From an uncultured beta proteobacterium (GTDB taxonomy: Bacteria; Pseudomonadota; Gammaproteobacteria; Burkholderiales; Burkholderiaceae_C): a DNA stretch of 64,000 nucleotides. The position numbers and the translations under genes were made by a program. Location of the stretch: contig CAIRAW010000043.1 of assembly GCA_903876735.1 (NCBI GenBank), positions 1 to 64,000 of the forward strand, written 5' to 3'. A model generated the notes under the pieces. That model was not told where the DNA came from and made no database searches. It saw only the letters and a list, made by a program, of their open reading frames with translations. Shown in pieces: positions 50,322-64,000 of the stretch (the stretch's first letter is position 1; each line of letters starts with the position of its first letter).

Positions 50322-51371
50322 TTAACTCTGTCGGGGAGGTGCAGAAGTGTCGCGACGAATAAGTTCCACCGGCATCACGTCGCGAGTCGGCGGAGTCAGC
50401 GCGCCGTTTCGAATTCTATCCAGCATTCGTCGGCAGGCAACGCGTGCCATATCCTTGGCCGAAGAATTGATCGTAGTCAGGCTAATCAACCGTGAACCCG
50501 CCAGCGGAATGTTGTCAAAGCCCACCACAGACAACTGGCCTGGCACATCAATATTCTTAGCGCGAGCAGCTTCAAGCACACCCAATGCAATCGAATCGCC
50601 ACCGGCCATGATGGCTGTGACTGGATCTTGAAGCTCAAGCATCTGGGTTGAGCCCGAGTAGCCAGACTCGTAGCTGAATGTGTTCCACACAACTGGCGTG
50701 TTTTCCGGCGGCACACCCTTTTCGCGGAGGAAATTAAGGGCTCCCCTGGCACGATCTCGACTGGTTGATGAGTTCTCGGGCCCCATCACTAATCCAATTC
50801 GACGATGGCCGAGTTCATACAGGTGCCGCATGATTTCAGCGCCACCAGAAAAGTTGTCGGATTCAACGATGTCGACCTTCGAGTCATCCATCGAACGCAC
50901 GGCTAGGACAACGGGAACGCCCAACCTTTGTAGTTCGCGAACCATGAATGAGTCGGTCGTAGCCGAAAGTAAGATCATTCCCTCCAAGTATTCATCGATG
51001 ATCGGACGAAAACTCGAGAGGTGTGCAGCGTCATTCGCCGAGTTCATCGGATCAATGAGCACCATGACGTGGTATTGAAACTCCAACATATCGTGATGAA
51101 TATTTTCCAGCACCATCGTCATGAAGCGGTTATGCAATTGATCCACACTGAGCAAAACACCGACTGTGCGTGTGGGAAGGTTCCTTTTCTTCTTGCCGGG
51201 GCGCTTGGACGCATAGCCCATTGAAACCGCAGCGCGTTGCACCGCATCTCGCGTCTCTTCGCTAATTGTCTGGTGCCCCGCCAGTGCTCGCGAAATTGTT
51301 GATGTGGAAAGTTTGAGCGCGTCAGCGATGTCCTGTAACAGAACACTCTTCTTCGGATTTGAACTGGCCAT
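50322..51371 (-). CDS. LacI/GalR-family transcriptional regulator
   Basis: 349 residues. N-terminal LacI HTH: VLLQDIADALKLSTSTISRA then LAGHQTISEETRDAVQRAAV and hinge GYASKRPG. The effector domain starts RTVGVLLSVDQLHNRFMTMV, with ALGVLEAARAKNIDVPGQLS and VVGFDNIPLAGSRLISLTTI. Divergent from the sugar-type ABC importer, which it presumably controls in response to the imported compound. 336 nt separate the two starts and contain two palindromes. Confidence 0.88.
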   Translation of the reverse strand: MASSNPKKSVLLQDIADALKLSTSTISRALAGHQTISEETRDAVQRAAVSMGYASKRPGKKKRNLPTRTVGVLLSVDQLHNRFMTMVLENIHHDMLEFQYHVMVLIDPMNSANDAAHLSSFRPIIDEYLEGMILLSATTDSFMVRELQRLGVPVVLAVRSMDDSKVDIVESDNFSGGAEIMRHLYELGHRRIGLVMGPENSSTSRDRARGALNFLREKGVPPENTPVVWNTFSYESGYSGSTQMLELQDPVTAIMAGGDSIALGVLEAARAKNIDVPGQLSVVGFDNIPLAGSRLISLTTINSSAKDMARVACRRMLDRIRNGALTPPTRDVMPVELIRRDTSAPPRQS

Positions 51372-51707
51372 AAAGCGTCTTCGGTGGCGTAGAAAATAGG
51401 AATATTATGTCGCAACATCTATGCAAATTGCATAAAACTTGATTGCTAGTTTGCGTCGATTCTTTGATGAACTGGGTAAATCGGTGGAAATTTCTATGCG
51501 TTGCCTCCCTTAATAGCCTTATTGTCTTCTTGTTATTCATTGGTGAAAACAGAAAAATCAAGGGAGTGAGGCAATCTAGGGAATTTCCCTAATGTTTGCA
51601 CTGCAATTGCGTCTTCTTTGCACGTACATTTAGCCTCGGTAGGCAGACTAGGGCTGCAGACCGTGATGGTGATGCGATGTCCGCGACCACACAAACTAGG
51701 AGACCAA
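51372..51707. promoter_or_regulatory. lacI / ABC-importer divergent control region with two palindromes
   Basis: 336 nt, clearly AT-rich. ATGCAA-A-TTGCAT (51421-51433) has 6-nt arms; TAGGGAA-T-TTCCCTA (51577-51591) has 7-nt arms; both have a single central base. LacI-family operators are usually even-length palindromes with a central CG, so neither is textbook, but they are the only strong symmetric sites. TAGGAGACC (51697-51705) is the ribosome site of the binding-protein gene. No other gene is seen. Confidence 0.55.
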
Positions 51708-52886
51708 ATGAAGCTGAGCCTGAAGCGATTTGCGACGCTGTGCGTCGCGTCTGCACTCCTGGCTGGCGGCGTCGCAAACGCTGCCGGTCTGGATGAAATA
51801 CCTGCTGATGTTGCGAAACGCCTGTACTCGAAGGACGTACTGGATCCGGCGCAACCGATTGGCCCAAGTGCCTACAGGGATTGGAAACCTAAGAAGGGCC
51901 CACCTTGGACCATCGGCTATGCGAGCTCTTACGCCGGCAACACTTGGCGTGCTGCCGCGATGGACAGACTGCAAAACGAGATCATCCCTAAGTGGAAAAA
52001 ACTCGGTTTAATCAAGGAAGTCATCATCACTCAGTCGAATCTGAAGGACGCAACGCAAATTCAACAGATGCGCCAGTTGGTTGATCAAGGGGTAGACGCA
52101 ATCATTGTTTGTTGCTCCAACCCTACCGCACTCAATCAGACCATTAAATACGCGCATGACAAAGGTGTTCCAACGTTCTCCTTCACGGGCTATTTGACTT
52201 CGCCGTACGCAATAAACTCTTCTGTCAACTACCAAGCGGGTGGCCGTGAGTTGGGTCTGTGGATGGGTGAGCAAATTGGCAAAAAGGGCAATGTCCTGGT
52301 CGTGCAAGGTATCCCTGGCACATCAGGCTCCGACTCGCAAGACCGCGGAATCAAGTCTGGCTTAGCAAGCTTCCCCGACATCAAAGTCGTCGGTGACGTT
52401 GCCGGCATGTGGACCGATCAGGTTGCACAGGCCGAAGTGCAAAAGTGGTTGGCAACGAACCCGGGGCAGCTTGACGGCATCGTTGTCCAGTCAGCAGCCG
52501 AACTCGGCGTACTGCGGGCTGTCCAGCAGTCAGGTCGCAAGATGATACCGATTGCCATCGGCGGTGAAGTCGGCGCCCTGTGCTACTGGCGCAAGAATCC
52601 CGGCTACATCAGCAGCGCTATCCAACTGTGGCCTCCAGGTGACGACATCGAACTGGCGTGGAACATCATGATGCGCACGCTCGAAGGTCAGGGCCCCAAG
52701 ATGCAATCGGTGCTGGTTGATGCGGTCAAGTTCACGATTGAAGATGTCAAGAAGCTTGTTCCAGAGAACTGTAGTCAAGATTCGGACAAATGGGTGAACG
52801 TTGGAACGGACAAATGGGGCAGCAGTTTGGCCTATCTCGACAAGTTCTTCTTGCGCCCGGCCGATCCGGAAAAATTTAAGCGCTAA
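51708..52886 (+). CDS. ABC transporter substrate-binding protein, sugar-binding (RbsB-like) family
   Basis: 392-residue periplasmic binding protein with signal peptide (residues 1-25, cleavage after ANA). The mature part has WTIGYASSYAGNTWRAAAMD, LVDQGVDAIIVCCSNPTALN, VLVVQGIPGTSGSDSQDRGI and DGIVVQSAAELGVLRAVQQS, the type I sugar-binding fold. About 70 residues longer than RbsB. ATG 51708 has TAGGAGACC upstream. Starts the long plus-strand operon with the opsin-like gene. The ligand is not evident; the downstream hydrolase and SCP2-like gene make a non-sugar ligand possible. Confidence 0.86.
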   Translation: MKLSLKRFATLCVASALLAGGVANAAGLDEIPADVAKRLYSKDVLDPAQPIGPSAYRDWKPKKGPPWTIGYASSYAGNTWRAAAMDRLQNEIIPKWKKLGLIKEVIITQSNLKDATQIQQMRQLVDQGVDAIIVCCSNPTALNQTIKYAHDKGVPTFSFTGYLTSPYAINSSVNYQAGGRELGLWMGEQIGKKGNVLVVQGIPGTSGSDSQDRGIKSGLASFPDIKVVGDVAGMWTDQVAQAEVQKWLATNPGQLDGIVVQSAAELGVLRAVQQSGRKMIPIAIGGEVGALCYWRKNPGYISSAIQLWPPGDDIELAWNIMMRTLEGQGPKMQSVLVDAVKFTIEDVKKLVPENCSQDSDKWVNVGTDKWGSSLAYLDKFFLRPADPEKFKR

Positions 52887-53027: not shown

Positions 53028-55019
53028 GTGCCTCACTCAGTGATCGACGAGAGCCGTGCGCATGCCGCCGCCGCGCCTCCTACCGCAACCCGGGGGATCG
53101 CTATCGTCGGTGTACGCAAGTCTTTTGGCATGACCAAAGCACTCAATGGATGCAACTTCAGCGCCAACCTGGGTGAAATCCATGCCATCGTAGGCGGCAA
53201 TGGCTGTGGCAAGAGCACGCTTGCAAAAGTTATATCTGGTGTGATACCAATCGATGCGGGTCAAGTCTCGGTTCTTGGCCGCAGTCCAGCGGCGCCACAC
53301 GAAGCGCGCGCTGCGGGAATCGCCACCGTATTTCAGGAAGTCCTTGTTGCGGACGATTGCTCAGTGGTCGAAAACTTGTACCTTGGCGCCGACAGTTTGT
53401 GGTCACGCGCCCTGAGTACGACGGAAAAATATGAAACCGCCAAATCCTTGATGAAGGAATTGACGGGCTTACCGATTGATCCCGATACATTGGTCGGGAT
53501 GCTGCCATTGAACATCAAGCAATGGATCACCATTGGTCGGGCCTTGCTCTGCAAGCCTCGGGTGCTGATACTTGATGAATCCTCGGCAGCGCTTGATCTG
53601 GATTCCACGGAACGACTGTTTGCCAAGATGCGTTCCATGCGCGACGCCGGTGCTGCGGTCATTATTGTTACCCACCGCATTGCGGAATTAATACGCGTCT
53701 GCGATCGCGCCACGGTATTGCGTGATGGTAAGGACGTTGGCGTCCTCGAAAAGGGTGAAATAACCGAAAAGAATCTGCTGCGCTTGATGACCGGAAAAGG
53801 TGATTCACCGGCTGAAGGAGCGCCAAACAAAGCGGCAACACCACTCGGCGGCGTGGTCATGCGCGCACGCCAAATGAAGGTTTGGCCGCAGGCCGTCCCC
53901 GTGAATTGTCAACTGCGCCAAGGTGAGATCTTGGGCGTGGCCGGACTCGACGGGCAGGGCCAGAGTGAATTCGTGCGCATGCTGGCTGGCGTCGATCCCA
54001 CTTTCCAATCAGCACCACAAGTACAAAATGAGCAGGGCGAGTTTGTCGACATTACCGACCTGAAATCAGCCGTCAACCGGGGTGTTTCCTACGTGTCGGG
54101 TGACCGCAAGCGCGAAGGCATCTTTGCCAATCTGAGCATTTTCGAGAATCTCCTGATGCCGCTTTACCGGCGCAAGACGCGGGGCGGGAAACTGGCACTG
54201 ATTGACTGGTCCAGTCTGGATGGCATCTTTGATTGGGAAGTTGAGCGACTCGCCATTCGGATGGGTGAGCGTGGAAACAAGATCACCTCGCTGAGCGGCG
54301 GCAACCAACAAAAAGTTCTTATTGGCCGCGCCTTCGCGCTCAACCCCAGTATTCTGATACTGAACGATCCAGCTCGAGGCATTGACGTGGGTGCCAAGGC
54401 GGAGTTGTACCGGCACTTGCGTGACTTTGCGAGTATTGGCAAATCTGTCGTCTACCTCTCAAGTGAAATAGAGGAATTTGTCGGCTTTTGCTCGCGGGTT
54501 TTGGTGTTTCGAAATGGCAGCATTTTCGACGAGTTCAGCGGCGTTGACATCCACCCCAAGCCAATCTTGGAAGCGATGTTTGGGCAGACCCGCGTCAATC
54601 AATTGCCCACCCAATATGACGACTCGGTAACACAGGAGAACGACAGCATGAAGATCGTTGAGTTTGATAAAGACGAAAAAGCTGATTCACCGCGCAGGTC
54701 CGATAGTTGGAAAGACAGAACCAGCGCCTACCCCAACTTTGACAGTAAATCTGAGGTGGCGCCCAAACCGCGCAGTCTCGATGCGTTTCGAACTTCTCCC
54801 TACCCTCACGTCGGTACAGAGGACATCAAGCCGGGGTTGTCATCCGGCCAGAGGTCCATTGTGGCCAAGGAGTTCAGTGAGATAGCCGCTCCAGCGGACC
54901 CGCGCGGGCTTGATGGACGCACTGTGAAAGCCGATACAACACCGACCGCTTCCACGCCACGCTCGTCAATCAAGATCATCGAGTTCGGGCAAGACGTCTC
55001 AGCACGGCCACGTCGATGA
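53028..55019 (+). CDS. sugar-type ABC transporter ATPase (RbsA-like, two NBDs) with C-terminal extension
   Basis: 663 residues, about 160 longer than RbsA. NBD1 has Walker A GGNGCGKSTLAKVISG (about 55-70) and Walker B VLILDESSAALD, but its signature region reads MLPLNIKQWITIGRAL instead of LS-G-Q. NBD2 has the degenerate Walker A usual in the family (VAGLDGQGQSEFVRMLAG), a normal LSGGNQQKVLIGRAF and LILNDPARGIDVGAKAEL. Residues about 541-663 are an extra, probably disordered, proline/serine/charge-rich tail bounded by MKIVEFDKDE and IKIIEFGQD. The start is GTG 53028. Within the gene, AGGAG (54634-54638) lies 9 nt before an in-frame ATG (54648) at the beginning of the tail. Confidence 0.85.
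   Translation: MPHSVIDESRAHAAAAPPTATRGIAIVGVRKSFGMTKALNGCNFSANLGEIHAIVGGNGCGKSTLAKVISGVIPIDAGQVSVLGRSPAAPHEARAAGIATVFQEVLVADDCSVVENLYLGADSLWSRALSTTEKYETAKSLMKELTGLPIDPDTLVGMLPLNIKQWITIGRALLCKPRVLILDESSAALDLDSTERLFAKMRSMRDAGAAVIIVTHRIAELIRVCDRATVLRDGKDVGVLEKGEITEKNLLRLMTGKGDSPAEGAPNKAATPLGGVVMRARQMKVWPQAVPVNCQLRQGEILGVAGLDGQGQSEFVRMLAGVDPTFQSAPQVQNEQGEFVDITDLKSAVNRGVSYVSGDRKREGIFANLSIFENLLMPLYRRKTRGGKLALIDWSSLDGIFDWEVERLAIRMGERGNKITSLSGGNQQKVLIGRAFALNPSILILNDPARGIDVGAKAELYRHLRDFASIGKSVVYLSSEIEEFVGFCSRVLVFRNGSIFDEFSGVDIHPKPILEAMFGQTRVNQLPTQYDDSVTQENDSMKIVEFDKDEKADSPRRSDSWKDRTSAYPNFDSKSEVAPKPRSLDAFRTSPYPHVGTEDIKPGLSSGQRSIVAKEFSEIAAPADPRGLDGRTVKADTTPTASTPRSSIKIIEFGQDVSARPRR
54634..54650 (+). promoter_or_regulatory. 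possible internal ribosome site and start for the ATPase tail
   Basis: AGGAG at 54634-54638 is followed 9 nt later by ATG 54648, in frame with the ATPase. Translation from here would give a separate 123-residue protein consisting of exactly the extra C-terminal tail. Other ribosome sites in this operon are no better. Whether it is used is unknown. Confidence 0.45.
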
Positions 55020-55050: not shown

Positions 55051-56442
55051 ATGAACGACAGCTGCACGGAAACACAGGGCGGATCAGCTTCCAACACCTA
55101 TTTGTTGGTTCCGATCCTGCTGTTGTTTCTTTTGCTCATCATCGCGGTGCTGCGCAGCCCCAATCTGGTCTCCAGTGCCGGTATTGGCAGCGCAGTGATC
55201 GTGATGACGCCTTTGGTGCTGGCAACTTATTCGCTGATGGCATTGGCCATGGCGGGACGCGGAACGGTGGACCTCTCGGTTGGGCCGCTCATGGGATTTG
55301 TCAATGTCACCCTGGTCGTTCTGAATGGCCTTGGTGCGCTGGAGTCACCGCTGCTCTTCTTTCTTTATGCGATCGCCGTCGGTGTCGCCTACCAGTTGCT
55401 CATGGGGTTGATCATTGTGTATGTGCGGGTGCAGCCGATCATCGTGGCGCTCAGCGGTTACCTTGCGTTGTCCGGCATCAACCTGGTCATCCTGCCGCGC
55501 CCGGGCGGCACGGCTCCCGAATGGATGTCGGCCTGGGGTTTGGGTACAACGATCGACTCTCCGATCCTGGTCATCCTCGTGCTTTGCACGGCTGCCTGGT
55601 TGATCTTTACGCGCACTGCGTTTTACGGACACCTGCGACTGATGGGCTCGGATGAACGCGCGGCCTACACCAGTGGCGTGCGCATCACCATCGTTCGCCT
55701 GGGTGCGCATTGCATTGCAGGGATCTTCAGCGCCCTTGCGGCGTTGACCTATACCGCGCTCATTGGATCCGGTGACCCGACCCAGGGAACTACCTATACC
55801 CTGATCTCGGTTACTGCACTCGTTCTCGGCGGCACCAGTCTGGCCGGGGGACGTGGTGGTGCAATCGGGTCCCTACTGGGTGCAGTAAATCTGTTCCTGA
55901 TCGGTTACGTGCTGGCAACCTTCAGTTTTGGCGCAGTACAGGGCTTTGTTACCGACCTTGCCTATGGTGCAATTCTTGTACTTTCGTTGCTGCTGACCAT
56001 AGCCATTCCATGGTTGCAAAGGCGCATCCGCCACGTTTCTCCGGCCTTGATCTTTATCGTCCTGTCGATGCTTTTTGTGGGCGTCATTCTGCATGCCAAA
56101 TATGACTACGCCGCTCCGGCGAAACTGGCTGAAGTCGCGATAGCAAGCAAGGCAGCCACGCCTGTCCATTCGGTCGACTTTGTATTCGAGCGCTGGGAAG
56201 ACGGAACGCAAGCCAGCAGTGGCACGCTGGCAAAACCCATCACGCTGTTTAGCCTGCTGATTCTGTCGGTACTCGTGATTGCCAGAGCCCTTGTGCTACA
56301 GAGCCAGCAGCGCCGCTGGTCACCGCGGATGATCATCATCATGCTGGTGTTGCTGGGTTTCGCTGCTTACCTTGTCGCAACCTACGTTGACGCACGGCAA
56401 ATGCCTGCGGCGGCTACGAAACCAGTGAAGGCGACGCCGTGA
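55051..56442 (+). CDS. sugar-type ABC transporter permease 1 (RbsC-like), enlarged
   Basis: 463-residue inner-membrane permease of the BPD_transp_2 family. Core: SLMALAMAGRGTVDLSVGPL, VRVQPIIVALSGYLALSGIN, LRLMGSDERAAYTSGVRITI (coupling segment) and LVLGGTSLAGGRGGAIGSLL. RbsC-type permeases have about 330 residues; this has an added C-terminal part (about 320-463) with a periplasmic-size loop (YDYAAPAKLAEVAIASKAAT) and two further membrane helices. Ends overlapping the next permease (GTGA). Confidence 0.84.
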   Translation: MNDSCTETQGGSASNTYLLVPILLLFLLLIIAVLRSPNLVSSAGIGSAVIVMTPLVLATYSLMALAMAGRGTVDLSVGPLMGFVNVTLVVLNGLGALESPLLFFLYAIAVGVAYQLLMGLIIVYVRVQPIIVALSGYLALSGINLVILPRPGGTAPEWMSAWGLGTTIDSPILVILVLCTAAWLIFTRTAFYGHLRLMGSDERAAYTSGVRITIVRLGAHCIAGIFSALAALTYTALIGSGDPTQGTTYTLISVTALVLGGTSLAGGRGGAIGSLLGAVNLFLIGYVLATFSFGAVQGFVTDLAYGAILVLSLLLTIAIPWLQRRIRHVSPALIFIVLSMLFVGVILHAKYDYAAPAKLAEVAIASKAATPVHSVDFVFERWEDGTQASSGTLAKPITLFSLLILSVLVIARALVLQSQQRRWSPRMIIIMLVLLGFAAYLVATYVDARQMPAAATKPVKATP

Positions 56443-57888: not shown

Positions 57889-58590
57889 ATGAACATCAAG
57901 TTGCTTGAGGCAACCGACGTCGCCAGCGGCACATTTTCCTTGTTGCTGCTGACCACCGTGGCAGCGACAGTTCTACTTTTAATGGGCACGGCCTGGGTAT
58001 CGCGCAAGTGGAAGCTGCCGCTGGCCATGGCGGCCATGGTCACGCTGGTGAGTGCCGGCCATTATTTTGAAGCCAGCCAGGTCTGGCAGGCCAGCAACCA
58101 GATGCCGGCAATCTACCGCTACGTTGCGTGGTTCATCACCATGCCACTGCAGGTGATGGTGATGTATTTCTTCGTGAACGCGATGGCGCCCCTGTCTACC
58201 TGGTTGTTCTGGCGCCTAATGGTGGCGTCGGTTGTGATGGTGTTGGCGCGTTACCTGGGTGAATCCAACCTGATGTACCCGACGCTTGGCTTTCTCATCG
58301 GTCTGGCATGCTGGCTTTACGTGTTGGGCGAAGTGTTCTTTGGCCGCATGGCCGAGGTCAGCGCCAGAAGTTCAAACTTCAGTGTGCACCGGGGCTATTT
58401 TTGGATGCGGCTGATCATCTCAATTGGCTGGGCGGTCTACCCACTGTGCTACTTCATCATTGGTTTTGCCGGCGGCGTGTCGCCGGGCAAGTTGAGTGTT
58501 GTCTACAACCTGTCGGATCTGGTGAACCAGGTGGCGTTTTGCCTGACGGTCCTTTCGGCGTCGATTCGTGACTCAGGAAACACCCGATGA
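57889..58590 (+). CDS. type-1 (microbial) opsin homologue lacking the retinal-binding lysine
   Basis: 233 residues, seven predicted helices, alignable by eye to proteorhodopsin over its length. Helix C reads YRYVAWFITMPL where proteorhodopsin has FRYIDWLLTVPL: the arginine is kept (R77) but the proton-acceptor Asp is Ala (A80), and the donor Glu position is Val (V91). Helix F keeps GWAVYP (W181, Y184, P185). Helix G reads VVYNLSDLVNQVAF against IYNLADFVNKILF: the counterion Asp is kept (D210) but the Schiff-base lysine is Gln (Q214, codon CAG at 58528-58530). H58, near the Asp in helix C of proteorhodopsins, is also kept. A covalent retinal pigment is therefore not expected. GGAG lies 8 nt before ATG 57889. 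No retinal or carotenoid genes are in the window. Confidence 0.88.
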   Translation: MNIKLLEATDVASGTFSLLLLTTVAATVLLLMGTAWVSRKWKLPLAMAAMVTLVSAGHYFEASQVWQASNQMPAIYRYVAWFITMPLQVMVMYFFVNAMAPLSTWLFWRLMVASVVMVLARYLGESNLMYPTLGFLIGLACWLYVLGEVFFGRMAEVSARSSNFSVHRGYFWMRLIISIGWAVYPLCYFIIGFAGGVSPGKLSVVYNLSDLVNQVAFCLTVLSASIRDSGNTR

Positions 58591-58697
58591 ATGCACTTCA
58601 CACGACCGGTCCCCTGGGACTGGCTGCTTATTTCTTGTCAGAAAACGCGCAAGCCTGCGCTGCACTTGTTAACTGGTTTGAAGGGATTGAATCATGA
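58587..58697 (+). CDS. 36-residue small ORF coupled to opsin-like and flotillin genes
   Basis: ATG 58587 overlaps the opsin-like stop (ATGA) and its own TGA (58695-58697) overlaps the flotillin ATG (ATGA), so it fills the gap exactly. The product begins MNALHTTGPLGLAAYFLSEN and continues AQACAALVNWFEGIES, a short alanine-rich, probably amphipathic helix with acidic ends. Its Shine-Dalgarno would be AGGAAAC inside the opsin-like gene, 8 nt upstream. Such double overlap is typical of translational coupling, but 36 codons can stay open by chance. Function unknown. Confidence 0.55.
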   Translation: MNALHTTGPLGLAAYFLSENAQACAALVNWFEGIES

Positions 58698-60400
58698 ACG
58701 GCGCCGACATCATTGCCATCGTTATCCTGGCCGCAATTGTCATTGCGATCATTGTCTATTTGTTGCACTGGCTGTACCGACATTCGTCGAAAGATCTATC
58801 CTTTGTTCGCACCGGTTTCGGAGGAGAGCGCGTGGTAATGGGAGGTGGCGCCTTGGTGCTGCCGATCGTGCACGACATCACCGAGGTCAGCATGAATACG
58901 CTGCGAATTGATGTGCGTCGCGCCGGCGAAAAGTCGCTCATCACACGAAACCGAATGCGTATTGAAGTCAACGTCGAGTTCTTTGTGCGCGTGATCCCCT
59001 CGCCGGAAGCAGTTGCAGCCGCGGCCCGAACTTTGGGCAACCGCACGCTTAACCCCGACAGCTTGAAAGACCTGGTGCAGGGCCGCTTTGTTGATGCCAT
59101 GGGGTCAGTGGCTGCGCGCATGACGATGGAAGAGATCCATGAAAACCGCAGCGACTACATCAAGAGCGTGAAGGCTCTGGTTGCCGATTCACTCACTGCC
59201 AATGGCCTGGAACTCGAAGCGGTTTCGCTCACCGGGTTGGATCAAACGGACATGAAGTTGTTTAACCCCTCCAATGCGTTTGACGCTGAGGGTTTGACAC
59301 GCTTGACAGAAGAAATAGAGACGCGCAAGAAGAAACGTAACGACATAGAGCAGGACACGATGATTGCGATTCGCAAGAAAAACCTTGAATCCGAAAAGCT
59401 TGCGCTCAGCATCGATCAGGAGAGCGAATTTGCTCGCTTGAGTCAAGAAAGTGAAGTAGCCATGCGCCGCGCACAGCAGAAAACCGAAATTGCGCTGGAG
59501 AAGACCGATCGTGAGCGTGACATTGAAGAAGCGCAGATTCGGTCAGCGGAAATTGTTCAGAAGAGTCGCATCAACCAGACCCGGGCAATTGATTCAGAGC
59601 GTATTTTGCAGGAGCAAAAAACTTCACACCTGGAAATCCAGCGCCGCCGCGCCCTTGAACTCGAAGAGCAGGAGCGCGTGATCGCGGTGGCAGCCAAGTC
59701 CAAGGATGAGTCAGAAGCACAAGCTCAGGCTGAATCAGCACGCGCCCTTATGATTGCCGCGCAGGAAAGAGTGATTACGGTGCGCGAAACTGAAATCGCC
59801 GAACGCCGCAAATCGATTGATTTAATTGAAGCGACGCAAGAAGCAGAACGTGACGCAATCATGCAAACCAAGCGAGCCGAAGCGGGTTTGATTGCTGCAG
59901 TGGATCAGGCCAAGGCCGAGCGTACCAACGCCGAGGCGGCGGCTTATCGCTACGACGTGGATGCAGAGGGTAAGCGAAAGCTCAACGAAGCGGAGAATTT
60001 GCGTTCCGACGCATCACGGCGCAGCAGTTTTAACCAGAAATTGATCGATACCCTGCCGAGCATCATCCGCGAGAGCGTCAAGCCGATGGAAAACATCGAG
60101 TCGATCCGAATCCTGCAGGTCGACGGTGTGCCCGGCCTGAGCGGCGCTGTTGGTGGCGGCGGTTCGGGAGCCGGCAGCAGCGACGGCGGTCCGCGCGCCG
60201 GTGGCTTGAGCGACAACGTGGTGAATTCAGCCCTGCGCTACCGAGCCCAGGCGCCGTTCATTGACACCTTGCTGCAGGAGATTGGCGTATCACCGAGTTC
60301 CATCACTAGCCTGGGTCATCTGGGCAGCGTGATGGCCTTGCCAGTTACCGATAACAAGGAAGGCAACTCCGCAGCAGGTGGCAGTGCCGGCAAGCCCTGA
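58694..60400 (+). CDS. flotillin-like membrane scaffold protein (YqiK type)
   Basis: 568 residues. N-terminal membrane helix (IIAIVILAAIVIAIIVYLLH, 5-24), then an SPFH/PHB domain (about 30-210: FVRTGFGGERVVMGGGALVL, EVNVEFFVRV), then a long charged coiled coil (about 215-460) with repeated E/A/R-rich heptads, and a C-terminal part with a Gly/Ser-rich stretch (about 483-500). Flotillins oligomerise in ordered membrane domains and gather membrane proteins. AAGGGA precedes ATG 58694. The opsin-like protein or the transporters encoded around it are the obvious clients, by inference. Confidence 0.86.
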   Translation: MNGADIIAIVILAAIVIAIIVYLLHWLYRHSSKDLSFVRTGFGGERVVMGGGALVLPIVHDITEVSMNTLRIDVRRAGEKSLITRNRMRIEVNVEFFVRVIPSPEAVAAAARTLGNRTLNPDSLKDLVQGRFVDAMGSVAARMTMEEIHENRSDYIKSVKALVADSLTANGLELEAVSLTGLDQTDMKLFNPSNAFDAEGLTRLTEEIETRKKKRNDIEQDTMIAIRKKNLESEKLALSIDQESEFARLSQESEVAMRRAQQKTEIALEKTDRERDIEEAQIRSAEIVQKSRINQTRAIDSERILQEQKTSHLEIQRRRALELEEQERVIAVAAKSKDESEAQAQAESARALMIAAQERVITVRETEIAERRKSIDLIEATQEAERDAIMQTKRAEAGLIAAVDQAKAERTNAEAAAYRYDVDAEGKRKLNEAENLRSDASRRSSFNQKLIDTLPSIIRESVKPMENIESIRILQVDGVPGLSGAVGGGGSGAGSSDGGPRAGGLSDNVVNSALRYRAQAPFIDTLLQEIGVSPSSITSLGHLGSVMALPVTDNKEGNSAAGGSAGKP

Positions 60401-60438: not shown

Positions 60439-60885
60439 ATGTCCCTCACGCCAAACGACCCGGCCATTGTGATCGTTGAAAAACGATTGGCAGTGGTTAC
60501 CAATTGGAGTCTTTTTGCTTCATTTGGCATGTGCTTTTTGTTGTCCGGTTTCAGTGCTGCGAACTGGGCCTTGGGCCTGCTGGGATATGGGCTATTGGTG
60601 CTGGGATTTGTCGGGCATCTGGTCATCAACCATGTCTTCGAGCAAGGATTCAGTCCGGGCGAAGTGGCCCTGGGTCTGGTGTTATTCGGCATCTCTGCTT
60701 TGAGTTTCATTGCCAGTGCCTTGTTCAGTGCGCGCTTTGGTCCAGAAAACCTGGGCTTGGGTCTGGCCGGTTTTGGCGCTCTTGCGGCATGCCTCGTGTT
60801 CTATCTGGTGATCCGCTATGGCATGCGCGGCACCTGGGAACTAATCCACACCTTGCGCCATCGCCAAAAGGAATCGTCGTCATGA
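60439..60885 (+). CDS. four-helix small membrane protein
   Basis: 148 residues with four hydrophobic helices (about 22-42, 45-66, 75-97, 105-126) and a basic C-terminus (LIHTLRHRQKESSS). Short conserved-looking N-terminus MSLTPNDPAIVIVEKRLAVV. It overlaps the symporter gene by 4 nt (ATGA), so it may be an accessory subunit of that transporter, like the small partners of some sodium:solute symporters (DUF4212 type). No specific family recognised. Confidence 0.65.
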   Translation: MSLTPNDPAIVIVEKRLAVVTNWSLFASFGMCFLLSGFSAANWALGLLGYGLLVLGFVGHLVINHVFEQGFSPGEVALGLVLFGISALSFIASALFSARFGPENLGLGLAGFGALAACLVFYLVIRYGMRGTWELIHTLRHRQKESSS

Positions 60886-62855
60886 CGGAGCAAATGGTTT
60901 GGCTGTTCGCCTTTATCGCGCTCTATTGGGCCTACTGCATGCAGTGGGGTGTCAGCAGCGCGCGCTTGACGCAAGGGTCGAGCGACTTCTTCCTTGCCAG
61001 CCGTAGTTTGCCGGCATGGGTATTTGTGCTGTGCGCCACTGGTGCTTCGTTTGCTGGTTGGGCAATGCTGGGCTACCCCTCACTGGTGATGCGCGACGGA
61101 CTTGCATTTGCCCAACTTGCGCTGGCTGCCGTGACGATTCCGCTCACCGGTGTCTTGTTCATGAAACGCCAGTGGCTATTGAGCAAACGTTTTGGTTACA
61201 TCACGCCTGGCGAGATGCTCAGCGACTACTTTGGTGGGGACGCACTGCGCATTTTGGTGGTTGGCATTGCCCTGGTGTGCGCCGTACCCTACGTGGGCAT
61301 GCACCTCAGCGCAACCGGTTACCTGATTCAATGGCTCAGCGCAGGTGTGGTGCCGGCCCGACTGGCGATGTGGTTGCTGACGGCCGTGGTGTTCCTGTAT
61401 GTCTCGATTGGTGGTCTGCGTGCGGTAGCCTACGTTGGTAGCCTGCAGGGTTTGATGTTGGGTGCAGGCATGTTGGCCCTCGGGTGGCTTGCGATGTGGC
61501 ACCTCGGCGGCGTCGAAGGTTTCAATGCTTTCATCCAAGGTTTGACCAAACTGGGTGCCAGTACGCTCGGATCATGGGGTAATTCTGCTGAGGGTTACAA
61601 CGCATACCTGCACATCCCTGGGGTTGTGCAATTCACTGCAGGAATGGGCCGGGAAGAACCGGTTGCAGGAATGTGGACCAGCGCCATGATTCTTTCAACC
61701 TGCTTTGCCCTGATGGGAATACAGGCTTCGCCGGCGTTTTCCATGCTGGCGTTTAGTTGCCGCGACCCGAGAGGCTTCGGGCCACAGCAGGTCTGGGTTT
61801 CCGCTGCCGGGGTTGGCCTGCTGCTGGTTTTCTTTGGTCTGGTCCAGGGTCTGGGCGCAAACTTCCTGGGTGCTTCTGCAGCGTTGCGTGAAGCGGGCTT
61901 GGCGCTTGGCTCGGTACTGCCGGATCTTGGGCGGGGCAAAGAAGCCCAACTCTACGCGCGCTATCTGCTAACTCTGGCCGAATCGGCCCCTTGGTTCATG
62001 GCTTTGCTTGCGGTTTGCGCTTTGGCAGCGATTCACTCCATGGTGTCGCTGTTCACTGCGACCACAGGTACCATCATCGTGCGCGACGTTTTTCTGCGTT
62101 ACCTGACGCCCCGTGCCGATATGACGCAACAAAAGCTCTATGCCCGCTGCAGCATGGCGGCGATCATCTTTGCCGCTTTGCTGTTGGCAACCTTTGCACC
62201 GAGCGCGCAAGCACAAATGGGTTCGCTTGCCTTGGGTTTTTCCCTTCAACTGTGGCCAGCATTGGCAGGCGTTTGCTGGTTTCCCTGGATTACACGTCAA
62301 GGAACCAGTGTCGGTCTGATCGCCGGCCTACTGGGTGTATTGTTCACGGAGACACTGGGCAACACCGTCTGCAGTTTTCTGGGCTTCGATCTACCTTGGG
62401 GGCGTTGGCCGTGGACCATCCACTCAGCCGGATGGGGTATCTTCCTGAACATTGTTTCTTGCACGGTGGTGTCCTGGATTTCCGCCGACAGGCATGACCG
62501 TGTTCGCCGCGCGCAGTTCCATGCCCTGTTCGCGCAGACCGTCGCTATTGCACCGAAGAAGCGCTTTCTGCGCCCGGTCGCATGGTCATTGACCCTCATC
62601 TGGTTTTTCTTTGCCATGGGTCCGGGGGCAATTTTGGGAAATGATCTATTGGGCGCGCCCAATGTCGGTCCCAAAGGCTGGATCATGGGTGTGCCTTCGC
62701 TTTGGGCTTGGCAAATGATGTGGTGGGCCTTGGGTGTTTTGATCCTCTGGTTTTTGGCCTATCGGATGCAGATGTCCACCCCGCTCCAGGGCGACAACTT
62801 ATTCTACGAAGCCGTTCCAACCCATTCCATTTCAATTTCGAAGGAGTCTTCATGA
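60882..62855 (+). CDS. sodium:solute symporter-family transporter
   Basis: 657 residues, about 13 membrane helices, SSSF/LeuT-fold. Seen: SDFFLASRSLPAWVFVLCAT with GASFAGWAMLGYPSLVMRDG (helix 1-2 region with sodium-site residues), SKRFGYITPGEMLSDYFGGD (family signature), YVSIGGLRAVAYVGSLQGLM, and LLAVCALAAIHSMVSLFTAT. About 150 residues longer than PutP, with three to four extra C-terminal helices. Substrate unknown. ATG 60882 overlaps the small membrane gene; its stop overlaps the SCP2-like gene (ATGA). Confidence 0.83.
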   Translation: MTEQMVWLFAFIALYWAYCMQWGVSSARLTQGSSDFFLASRSLPAWVFVLCATGASFAGWAMLGYPSLVMRDGLAFAQLALAAVTIPLTGVLFMKRQWLLSKRFGYITPGEMLSDYFGGDALRILVVGIALVCAVPYVGMHLSATGYLIQWLSAGVVPARLAMWLLTAVVFLYVSIGGLRAVAYVGSLQGLMLGAGMLALGWLAMWHLGGVEGFNAFIQGLTKLGASTLGSWGNSAEGYNAYLHIPGVVQFTAGMGREEPVAGMWTSAMILSTCFALMGIQASPAFSMLAFSCRDPRGFGPQQVWVSAAGVGLLLVFFGLVQGLGANFLGASAALREAGLALGSVLPDLGRGKEAQLYARYLLTLAESAPWFMALLAVCALAAIHSMVSLFTATTGTIIVRDVFLRYLTPRADMTQQKLYARCSMAAIIFAALLLATFAPSAQAQMGSLALGFSLQLWPALAGVCWFPWITRQGTSVGLIAGLLGVLFTETLGNTVCSFLGFDLPWGRWPWTIHSAGWGIFLNIVSCTVVSWISADRHDRVRRAQFHALFAQTVAIAPKKRFLRPVAWSLTLIWFFFAMGPGAILGNDLLGAPNVGPKGWIMGVPSLWAWQMMWWALGVLILWFLAYRMQMSTPLQGDNLFYEAVPTHSISISKESS

Positions 62856-63241
62856 CGACAGACATCAAAAGCTGGGCGATCAAGTTCAAGAACCTGTCTG
62901 ACAGCGACAAGACGATTGCCGCGATGGCGAAGTATTACACCTGTACCTACATGTGGGACATGGGCGAGAAAAAACTCATCATTGAAATGCACGACGGTAA
63001 GGTCAAGCACATCAACACCGATCCGGCACCGCTGGACGCCTATGACTTTGCACTGCGGGCCAGTGCCCAGACCTGGCGTGAGTTTGGCAGGCCGATGCCA
63101 CGCCCGATGTTCCACGGTATCTGGGCGGCGAGTTTCCGGGAAGACCTGAAGCTTGAAGGCAACATCCTGGTATTGATGCAGCACTTACGCAATTTCACTG
63201 TGCAGTTCGAGTTGCTGCGCAAGTGCGGCGTACCTGTTTAA
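62852..63241 (+). CDS. SCP2-like (sterol-carrier-protein-2 fold) small protein
   Basis: 129 residues beginning MTTDIKSWAIKFKNLSDSDK. It continues through a beta-sheet segment (CTYMWDMGEKKLIIEMHDGK, then VKHINTDPAPLDAYDFALRA) and ends with helices (FGRPMPRPMFHGIWAASFRE, then LVLMQHLRNFTVQFELLRKC), a pattern like SCP2-domain lipid-binding proteins. GAAGGAG precedes ATG 62852. It lies between the symporter and the alpha/beta hydrolase and may carry the hydrophobic substrate of that hydrolase. The fold call is moderate. Confidence 0.6.
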   Translation: MTTDIKSWAIKFKNLSDSDKTIAAMAKYYTCTYMWDMGEKKLIIEMHDGKVKHINTDPAPLDAYDFALRASAQTWREFGRPMPRPMFHGIWAASFREDLKLEGNILVLMQHLRNFTVQFELLRKCGVPV

Positions 63242-63288
63242 GCACGGGATTTAACACCGGTCATTTTCTACACGAAGGAGCTCAATCC

Positions 63289-64000
63289 ATGGCACGCCAT
63301 TCACCTGTTACCGGACGTTACGTCACGATCGACGTCGACGGCATGGAATACAAGGTCTTTTACTTGCAGAACGGCAAAGGCCAGCCGCTGATATGCCAGC
63401 ACACGGCGGGATGTCACAACCACCAGTGGCGCGGATTGCTGGAAGATGAAGAGATCACCAAGAACTACAGCGTCATTGCCTATGATCTTCCGCGCCACGG
63501 CAAATCGGATCCGCCGCTGAACACCAAGTGGTGGGAGTCCGAATACAAACTCACTGCTGACCACTACGTCAACTTCATCGTTAAGCTATGCGACGCGCTG
63601 GAGTTGCGCGACCCGATCTTCATGGGTTCTTCGTTCGGCGGCAATGTAGCCCTGCAACTCGCGCTGCGGCATCCGGAGCGCTTCAAGGCCGTGATACCGG
63701 TCGAGGCCGGCGACTACGCGCCTGGCTTTTACCTGGATTGGTGGCGTCACCCGATGGCCAATGCGGCGCAGGTCTGCGCCAGTGGTGTGTGGGATCTGAT
63801 GGCGCCGCAGTCACCCGACAAGGACCGCTGGCTGACCTGGTTTTACTACACCCAAGGCTCAGAGGCTTTCAAAGGCGACCTCTATTTCTACTCTGTTGAT
63901 CACGACTTGCGCGAAGAGCTGGGGCGTATCGATGGCCGCAAGTGCCCGGTGATCATGATGACCGGCACCTACGACTATCTGACTACGCCAGAGATGACCG
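63289..64000 (+). CDS. alpha/beta hydrolase, C-terminus cut by window edge
   Basis: 237 residues visible. Oxyanion region LICQHTAGCHNHQWRG (about 35-50), VIAYDLPRHGKSDPP, nucleophile elbow FMGSSFGGNVALQLA (serine about 115), and the start of the acid region KCPVIMMTGTYDYLT near the edge. The catalytic histidine must lie to the right. Similar in outline to MhpC-type and carboxylester hydrolases. CGAAGGAG precedes ATG 63289; 47 nt after the SCP2-like gene. It suggests that the operon imports and hydrolyses an ester or C-C bonded compound. Confidence 0.82.
   Translation, partial: MARHSPVTGRYVTIDVDGMEYKVFYLQNGKGQPLICQHTAGCHNHQWRGLLEDEEITKNYSVIAYDLPRHGKSDPPLNTKWWESEYKLTADHYVNFIVKLCDALELRDPIFMGSSFGGNVALQLALRHPERFKAVIPVEAGDYAPGFYLDWWRHPMANAAQVCASGVWDLMAPQSPDKDRWLTWFYYTQGSEAFKGDLYFYSVDHDLREELGRIDGRKCPVIMMTGTYDYLTTPEMT

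What the first reader, a model, noticed from the sequence alone, without database searches (positions are those of the whole stretch)
57889..58590. Microbial opsin homologue without retinal lysine, embedded in a transport operon
The protein aligns with proteorhodopsin through all seven helices, keeping R77, H58, D210 and the GWAVYP and YNL-D-VN cores, yet the three residues needed for light-driven proton pumping are replaced: Schiff-base Lys by Gln214, acceptor Asp by Ala80, donor Glu by Val91. Lysine-less type-1 opsin homologues are known from genome surveys, so the class is not wholly new. Their function is unclear, and this context (ABC importer, small ORF, flotillin, symporter) may reveal it. 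The intact pocket aromatics suggest a non-covalent ligand or a structural role rather than pseudogene decay.
Basis: partly seen in the sequence, partly recalled or inferred. Interest (0 to 1): 0.93.

Follow-up and report, generated by a model that had tools for sequence, protein, structure and literature searches.

The report
Blind opsin in an importer operon
A relative of light-driven bacterial pumps that lacks the lysine that holds the light-absorbing pigment sits in a nutrient-import operon of a bacterium in which no second rhodopsin was found, and it likely works without light as a built-in part of that importer.

Summary
The intact 233-aa ORF at 57889-58590 is a type-1 opsin with Gln214 in place of the retinal lysine. 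It is a lysine-less flotillin-associated rhodopsin (FArhodopsin), a group printed in 2023 from freshwater contigs, so the protein is a new member of a known kind.

What is added here:
(1) Its 97.8%-complete genome shows no second type-1 opsin, heliorhodopsin, Blh or RPE65-type oxygenase. All 44 lysine-less hosts tested (of 80 loci, 50 genomes tested) show exactly one type-1 opsin, so the published idea that FArhodopsins assist a proton pump finds no pump to act on.
(2) All 60 lysine-less sequences with known context carry Arg121; none of 28 lysine-bearing ones does. It aligns with Glu120 of PsFAR, a site mutated in PDB entry 9r23.
(3) In 62 of 62 long loci the opsin travels with an ABC importer, flotillin, symporter, SCP2-like protein and alpha/beta hydrolase. 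Opsin-linked permeases carry extensions that opsin-free relatives lack.
(4) It is under strong purifying selection and occurs in records of named rhizobial strains.

Most likely it is a light-independent membrane subunit of the importer. This is inferred; substrate and contact are unknown.

The parts
57889..58590 (+). lysine-less FArhodopsin (opsin fold, Q214 at the lysine site, R121 by inference at the ring end of the pocket)
58694..60400 (+). flotillin (Band_7 + Flot domains)
   Evidence: Pfam PF15975 3.1e-36 and PF01145 1.2e-14; beside the opsin in 78 of 80 loci, the other two being contig ends
56439..57833 (+). importer permease 2, with an N-terminal extension of about 134 residues not found in opsin-free relatives
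   Evidence: PF02653 at 177-448; alignment ranges; low-confidence model
55051..56442 (+). importer permease 1, with a C-terminal extension after about residue 330
   Evidence: PF02653 at 57-312; opsin-free relatives align no further than residue 331
53028..55019 (+). importer ATPase with two ABC domains (sugar-importer type)
   Evidence: PF00005, two stretches; nearest NCBIfam YtfR, XylG and AraG, all below cut-off
51618..52886 (+). periplasmic substrate-binding protein; the true start codon is uncertain
   Evidence: PF13407 2.9e-41; best PDB hits are CUT2-family sugar-binding proteins
50322..51371 (-). LacI-type regulator, divergent
   Evidence: PF00356 and PF13377; homologue found in 6 of 62 long loci
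60439..60885 (+). small hydrophobic protein o148 of unknown family
   Evidence: no Pfam or NCBIfam match; found in 43 of 43 lysine-less and 0 of 19 lysine-bearing long loci
60882..62855 (+). sodium:solute symporter family protein
   Evidence: PF00474 (scanned with a longer upstream start); in 62 of 62 long loci
62852..63241 (+). small protein, weakly SCP2-like
   Evidence: PF02036 in 5 of 12 members, best E 0.022, this member 0.047, below the cut-off; gene in 62 of 62 long loci
63223..64000 (+). alpha/beta hydrolase; runs past the window end (to 64140 on the contig)
   Evidence: L090:724-1641, PF00561 1.1e-20; in 62 of 62 long loci
58587..58697 (+). 36-codon bridging ORF that overlaps the opsin stop and the flotillin start; peptide not conserved between lineages, likely translational coupling

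Best explanation
This is a lysine-less flotillin-associated rhodopsin (FArhodopsin) that is predicted to bind no retinal and likely works without light, as a fixed membrane subunit of the ABC importer encoded in its own operon. Shown: the opsin fold by sequence and model, the missing lysine, Arg121 in all 60 lysine-less sequences with known context, strong purifying selection, no second opsin and no retinal-making gene found in this genome, and constant linkage to importer, flotillin, symporter, SCP2-like protein and alpha/beta hydrolase. Inferred: Arg121 lies at the ring end of the old retinal pocket. Also inferred: the opsin docks in the membrane on the extra segments that both permeases carry only in opsin-linked operons; its clade-specific invariant aromatic residues (W36, F94, F151, W172), at or near the cytoplasmic helix ends, face flotillin or the importer; and flotillin gathers importer and symporter into one membrane patch. 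Not known: the imported substrate, and whether the opsin only stabilises the complex or also gates it.
For: Linkage: permease 2 lies upstream in 80 of 80 loci and flotillin downstream in 78 of 80, the other two being contig ends. ABC, both permeases, opsin, flotillin, SSF, SCP2-like and hydrolase genes are in 62 of 62 loci of 18 kb or more. No light partner: one PF01036 match in the own genome. 44 of 44 lysine-less hosts show exactly one, while 3 of 6 lysine-bearing hosts show two, and the same 3 hold Blh. The own genome shows no heliorhodopsin, RPE65 family or Blh; its only two SQS_PSY matches are HpnC and HpnD. Pocket: R121 in 60 of 60 lysine-less and 0 of 28 lysine-bearing sequences, and in 120 of 121 in the database set, in which none has the lysine. 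It aligns with Glu120 of PsFAR, mutated together with His84 in 9r23 (title). Co-inheritance: all 4 permease-2 homologues at E 1e-90 or better in 369 genomes of the class, own included, sit beside an opsin and a flotillin. The 10 opsin-free relatives in the phylum sample also lack flotillin in the flanks held and lack the permease extensions. Opsin linkage needs one change on the permease tree (94/95). Constraint: dN/dS 0.012-0.117.
Against: No contact between opsin and permease was shown. The permease extensions arose once on the tree, so their match with the opsin is one event, not many. They could equally serve flotillin, the symporter or o148, which are also missing from the two nearest opsin-free operons. 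The permease-2 model is weak (mean pLDDT 63.6). Genomes reached through loci carry no completeness figures. A few lysine-less hosts do hold a Blh (1 of 44 over cut-off, one more below it), RPE65 family genes (4 of 46) or a heliorhodopsin (1 of 46). Trees disagree on order: lysine-bearing operons nest inside lysine-less ones on the permease tree, while the opsin tree puts all 60 lysine-less on one side (with a long-branch warning). A bridge by flotillin alone would explain the linkage without any opsin-permease contact.
Confidence: 0.5

Rival explanations
1. The opsin is a light-independent receptor: its altered pocket binds a small ligand (for instance a carboxylate held by Arg121) and reports it to the importer or flotillin.
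For: Retinal-free proteoopsin holds decanoate in the same pocket with its carboxylate on the lysine (PMC11322631, passages; entry 8cnk is also the fourth structural hit). The pocket aromatics W81, W181 and Y184 are kept in 121, 119 and 118 of 121 sequences. An Arg near an acidic residue (E or D at 125 in 60 of 60) would suit an acid.
Against: No transducer gene was seen among the neighbours scanned. Position 214 varies (Q, L, V, R, E, T), as does the acceptor site, so no ligand anchor other than R121 stands out.
Confidence: 0.25
2. The opsin is a scaffold partner of flotillin that organises a membrane microdomain, and the importer is only a client of that patch.
For: Flotillin is the constant downstream neighbour. 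Haro-Moreno 2023 proposed microdomain formation (PMC10308929, section 18). The own genome encodes HpnC and HpnD, so hopanoids that could enrich such patches are plausible.
Against: It does not account for the equally constant upstream permease 2 or for the permease extensions seen only with the opsin.
Confidence: 0.15
3. The opsin binds retinal or a carotenoid without a Schiff base and modulates a light-driven pump in the same cell, as proposed for marine FArhodopsins and Rh-noK.
For: The heterocomplex idea is published for hosts with a proteorhodopsin (PMC10308929, section 18). Three marine lysine-bearing hosts here do have a second opsin and Blh.
Against: No second type-1 opsin was found in the own genome or in any of the 44 lysine-less hosts tested; no heliorhodopsin, Blh or RPE65 in the own genome; R121 in place of the Gly or Glu of lysine-bearing kin.
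Confidence: 0.04
4. A decaying relic kept by hitchhiking in a useful operon.
For: All three pump residues are replaced.
Against: dN/dS 0.012-0.117 in the six comparisons where dS could be estimated; an open frame of at least 200 residues in all 80 loci, one of them (L018) cut by a contig end; invariant residues specific to the lysine-less clade.
Confidence: 0.02

Closest known systems
Lysine-less freshwater FArhodopsins (Haro-Moreno et al. 2023, PMC10308929)
   Different: Those were short contigs whose host genomes could not be read. Here no second opsin and no retinal synthesis gene was found in the host genome, and the opsin is shown to be part of a constant importer operon that also occurs in records of named rhizobial strains.
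Marine lysine-bearing FArhodopsins, e.g. PsFAR (PDB 9r21, 9r23)
   Same: Best structural and sequence match (35% identity, TM 0.95); lysine-bearing loci hold the same permease, flotillin, symporter, SCP2-like and hydrolase genes.
   Different: They keep the lysine, have Glu or Gly instead of Arg121, lack W36, F94, F151 and W172, lack a detectable o148, and some live with a second opsin and Blh.
Proteorhodopsin proton pumps
   Same: Fold, helix count, W81, W181, Y184, P185, D210, N213.
   Different: No lysine, no acceptor Asp (Ala80), no donor Glu (Val91), Arg instead of Gly at 121.
Rh-noK of marine betaproteobacteria (Yamauchi 2019, known here only as cited in PMC10308929)
   Same: A betaproteobacterial opsin without the lysine.
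   Different: Rh-noK is xanthorhodopsin-related and in tandem with a working rhodopsin gene; no second opsin was found in this genome.
Haloarchaeal opsin-related proteins (Becker 2016, PMC4915679, passages only)
   Same: Lysine replaced by Arg or a hydrophobic residue.
   Different: Sensory-opsin kin; group A lies beside chemotaxis transducers, none of which was seen among the neighbours scanned here; they lost pocket aromatics that this protein keeps.

Membership tests
Lysine-less (freshwater-type) FArhodopsin | type-1 opsin of the proteorhodopsin family | tested here: met
   PF01036 80.7 bits; best PDB hits are FArhodopsin and proteorhodopsins
Lysine-less (freshwater-type) FArhodopsin | no lysine in helix G; Gln, Thr, Leu or Arg there | tested here: met
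   Gln214
Lysine-less (freshwater-type) FArhodopsin | flotillin gene next to the opsin on the same strand | tested here: met
   flotillin 58694-60400
Lysine-less (freshwater-type) FArhodopsin | branches with the published freshwater sequences | not testable with these tools
Marine lysine-bearing FArhodopsin | retinal lysine present; DTT, DTL or DNI motif | tested here: not met
   Gln214; motif positions read A80, T84, V91
Proteorhodopsin proton pump | lysine, acceptor Asp, donor Glu | tested here: not met
   Q214, A80, V91
Rh-noK | in tandem with a working rhodopsin gene | tested here: not met
   one type-1 opsin found in the genome
Haloarchaeal opsin-related proteins, group A | adjacent HAMP/MCP transducer gene | tested here: not met
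   neighbour genes scanned hold no such domain
CUT2-type ABC importer (the importer itself) | periplasmic binding protein, double-ABC ATPase, BPD_transp_2 permease | tested here: met
   Pfam, PDB kin of the binding protein
Importer subunit (the opsin) | physical contact with the permeases | not testable with these tools
   only single-chain folds could be run

The most novel reading that the evidence does not exclude
A light-driven pump fold has been recruited as a permanent, non-photochemical subunit of an ABC importer: both permeases grew extra membrane segments to hold it, flotillin holds the whole in one patch, and loss of the lysine came with a new Arg in the old retinal pocket. This would be the first transport-complex role for a type-1 opsin.
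Probability: 0.42. Interest if true: 0.88.

Novelty: new member of a known kind. Interest (0 to 1): 0.63.

Why it matters
What FArhodopsins do is an open question, and the published guess ties them to a light-driven pump in the same cell. Genomes that hold only the lysine-less form separate the two: the gene is kept under strong selection where no pump and, in this genome, no retinal synthesis was found. Eleven of the 80 loci lie in records titled with a strain name and not marked as MAGs (for example Ensifer adhaerens Lc04, Rhizobium sp. BK313, Hoeflea alexandrii, Tistlia consotensis), so a deletion test looks practical.

Tried and rejected
Neutral decay: rejected by dN/dS and by clade-specific invariant residues. 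Light-pump helper: no partner found in this genome. Carotenoid synthesis from the two SQS_PSY genes: they pass the HpnD and HpnC cut-offs and not those of CrtB. A conserved small protein between opsin and flotillin: the bridging ORF exists, but its peptide is not conserved between lineages, so it was kept as a coupling signal only. Naming the substrate: the aldehyde dehydrogenase passes the cut-off for succinate-semialdehyde dehydrogenase (861.8 over 828), but the iron alcohol dehydrogenase, metallo-hydrolase and alpha/beta hydrolase pass no NCBIfam cut-off among the families shown, and these enzymes are not constant (FeADH in 34, ALDH in 29, MBL in 7 of 62 loci; only the hydrolase is in all). 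No substrate is claimed. Likeness to the blcABC lactone operon is recalled, not tested. SCP2 label: weak only (no PDB match). The first gene-calling attempt lost 24 of 81 opsins to longer overlapping ORFs and was replaced by tblastn. Reading lysine loss as one event on both genes: the two trees disagree, so no order of events is claimed. The permease-2 model was too weak for a fold search. Literature: searches listed no paper on the PsFAR entries 9r21-9r23 and none that by title or abstract describes the opsin as an importer part; the library holds open-licence PMC papers only and no preprints.

Full report
WHAT IS THERE. The ORF 57889-58590 encodes 233 residues that match Pfam Bac_rhodopsin well over its cut-off. 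The closest chains of known structure are entries named flotillin-associated rhodopsin (9r21, E 3.9e-50). An AlphaFold2 model from 24 sequences (mean pLDDT 89.9) matches 9r21 best, TM-score 0.95, 35% identity. The entry titles name 9r21 PsFAR, 9r23 its double mutant H84V/E120G and 9r22 the pump PsPR. I saw only titles and sequences, no paper.

A KNOWN KIND. PMC10308929 (abstract, passages and sections 14, 15, 17 and 18 read) describes FArhodopsins: proteorhodopsin kin beside a flotillin. Most of its freshwater sequences lack the lysine and show Gln, Thr, Leu or Arg. Its authors could not tell whether the freshwater hosts had other rhodopsins, always saw a standard pump in the marine hosts, and suggested that FArhodopsins complement the pump. 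The window protein fits that lysine-less group.

NO LIGHT PARTNER. The own genome (97.82% complete) has one PF01036 match, this gene. It shows no Blh (where nothing rang anywhere; the same model did ring over its cut-off in four genomes), no heliorhodopsin and no RPE65-type oxygenase. Its two phytoene/squalene synthase relatives pass the HpnD and HpnC cut-offs, so they are hopanoid genes. I then tested the genomes of 50 of the 80 loci: 44 lysine-less hosts and 6 lysine-bearing ones. All 44 lysine-less hosts show exactly one PF01036 match; 3 of the 6 lysine-bearing hosts show two. Blh is over its cut-off in 1 of 44 (a partial match in Lichenifustis; one more, in L017's genome, is below the cut-off) and in 3 of 6. 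In some searches, of 46 lysine-less hosts (own genome, two of its genus and 43 reached through loci), 1 has a heliorhodopsin (Bauldia) and 4 have RPE65-family genes. No completeness was given for genomes reached through loci.

THE POCKET. In 121 sequences (the window and the 120 listed of 351 found) none has the lysine: 101 Gln, 7 Leu, 6 Val, 4 Arg, 2 Glu, 1 Thr. In 88 sequences with known context (60 lysine-less, 25 lysine-bearing FArhodopsins, 3 second opsins of marine hosts taken as proteorhodopsins) five residues are in all the lysine-less and in none of the lysine-bearing: W36, F94, R121, F151 and W172. In the 121-sequence set R121 is in 120 (one Gln, P0091). R121 aligns with Glu120 of PsFAR (alignment). 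PMC11322631 (passages) places L136 and P202 of green proteorhodopsin beside the ring of retinal. L136 corresponds to V118 here, three residues before R121, so R121 lies about one turn on, at the ring end (mapping by constant offset, inferred). With the usual type-1 topology, recalled, W36, F94 and F151 lie at the cytoplasmic ends of helices A, C and E, and W172 in the cytoplasmic half of helix F. That would suit a partner on the inner face, such as flotillin (inference).

CONSTRAINT. My Nei-Gojobori script gave dN/dS for the opsin of 0.012 (L010), 0.038 (L011), 0.117 (L013), 0.078 (L049), 0.117 (L017) and 0.106 (L015), with dS from 0.30 to 2.11. Two further comparisons (L019, L062) were saturated.

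THE OPERON. From 5' to 3': binding protein, double-ABC ATPase, permease 1, permease 2, opsin, flotillin, o148, symporter, weakly SCP2-like protein, alpha/beta hydrolase, and beyond the window a 188-aa protein, a metallo-hydrolase, an iron alcohol dehydrogenase and a succinate-semialdehyde-type dehydrogenase. Permease 2 precedes the opsin in 80 of 80 loci, and flotillin follows in 78; the other two contigs end there. In 62 loci of at least 18 kb, the ATPase, both permeases, opsin, flotillin, symporter, SCP2-like and hydrolase genes are in 62, the binding protein in 60, o148 in 43 (all 43 lysine-less, none of 19 lysine-bearing). By record titles, hosts span beta-, alpha- and gammaproteobacteria and one Desulfobacterales MAG, with named strains of Ensifer, Rhizobium, Hoeflea, Metarhizobium, Mesorhizobium, Stappia, Zhengella, Tistlia, Lichenifustis and Taklimakanibacter. 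The scan kept the best 80 of 109 hits.

OPSIN-FREE RELATIVES. In 89 genomes of the genus, permease 2 occurs in 3, the same three that carry the opsin among the 40 relatives searched. In 369 genomes of the class, 4 (own included) have a permease 2 at E 1e-90 or better, and all 4 have opsin and flotillin beside it. In 398 genomes of the phylum at a looser cut-off, 12 match: the own genome and G694 have the opsin and flotillin; ten have neither in the flanks held, about 1.5 kb a side. For three of the ten, 12-15 kb were read, with neither found. The two nearest (59% identical) still carry binding protein, ATPase, hydrolase and ALDH homologues, so an import and catabolic core exists without opsin, flotillin, o148 and symporter. 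In every opsin-linked locus with a complete gene, permease 2 aligns from residue 40 or earlier. The exceptions are four contig-end fragments and L040, whose frame is broken. All ten opsin-free permeases align only from 135-181. Opsin-linked permease 1 has an open frame of 450 residues or more (one contig-end fragment apart); opsin-free ones have 313-363, with one of 416 whose start is not held (frames taken from the first start codon, so some are too long). On the permease-2 core tree the opsin-linked rows form one side of a branch (94/95; one change) with the 59% pair as nearest outside rows. Extensions and opsin thus appear to have come together once and stayed together. A low-confidence model (mean pLDDT 63.6) shows helices at 17-39, 44-66, 95-114 and 121-141 in or at the extension.

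HOW IT LIKELY WORKS. The opsin keeps its fold but likely not its photochemistry, and is inherited as part of an importer whose permeases carry extra segments. I take it as a light-independent membrane subunit that joins the importer to the flotillin patch. The receptor rival (pocket ligand, for instance an acid on Arg121) is next. That retinal-free proteoopsin binds decanoate in this pocket shows that such binding is possible in the fold.

AGAINST. No contact was shown; the linked traits are one evolutionary event; flotillin, symporter and o148 are missing from the nearest opsin-free operons just as the opsin is; the opsin tree (all lysine-less on one side, 100/100) and the permease tree (lysine-bearing nested inside) disagree, and the tool warned of long branches.

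VERDICT. The protein is a new member of a printed group. The genome context leaves the published pump-helper explanation without a pump in this group, and points to an importer role that can be tested in named strains.

Noticed in passing
window 58587-58697: A 36-codon ORF overlaps the opsin stop and the flotillin start by 4 bases each. Bridging ORFs of 17-53 codons with unrelated peptides occur in 9 of 18 representatives (random mean 1.6, highest 5 in 300 shuffles), which suggests translational coupling.
   Followed up: partly
L142 and L143 (G755, G555): An opsin-free, flotillin-free version of the operon: binding protein, ATPase, two short permeases, hydrolase and aldehyde dehydrogenase.
   Followed up: yes
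L065, L066, L126: Lysine-bearing FArhodopsins outside the marine single-cell genomes; in the genomes of L065 and L066 they are the only type-1 opsin found and no Blh was found.
   Followed up: no
L065-L068, L071, L073-L078, L080, L081, L083-L089: Permease 1 of the lysine-bearing operons has an open frame of 735-757 residues, against 463 here; the extra C-terminal part is unexplained.
   Followed up: no
L040: Permease 2 of the Yoonia MAG is broken into a 303-residue frame; assembly error or real loss is not known.
   Followed up: no
L090 2259-5797 (contig beyond the window): Metallo-hydrolase, iron alcohol dehydrogenase and succinate-semialdehyde-type dehydrogenase follow the operon and recall a lactone or hydroxy-acid pathway; the substrate is unproven.
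   Followed up: partly
L005 and L009 (own genome, contig C61): HpnC and HpnD genes in tandem: squalene for hopanoids, lipids that could support flotillin patches.
   Followed up: no
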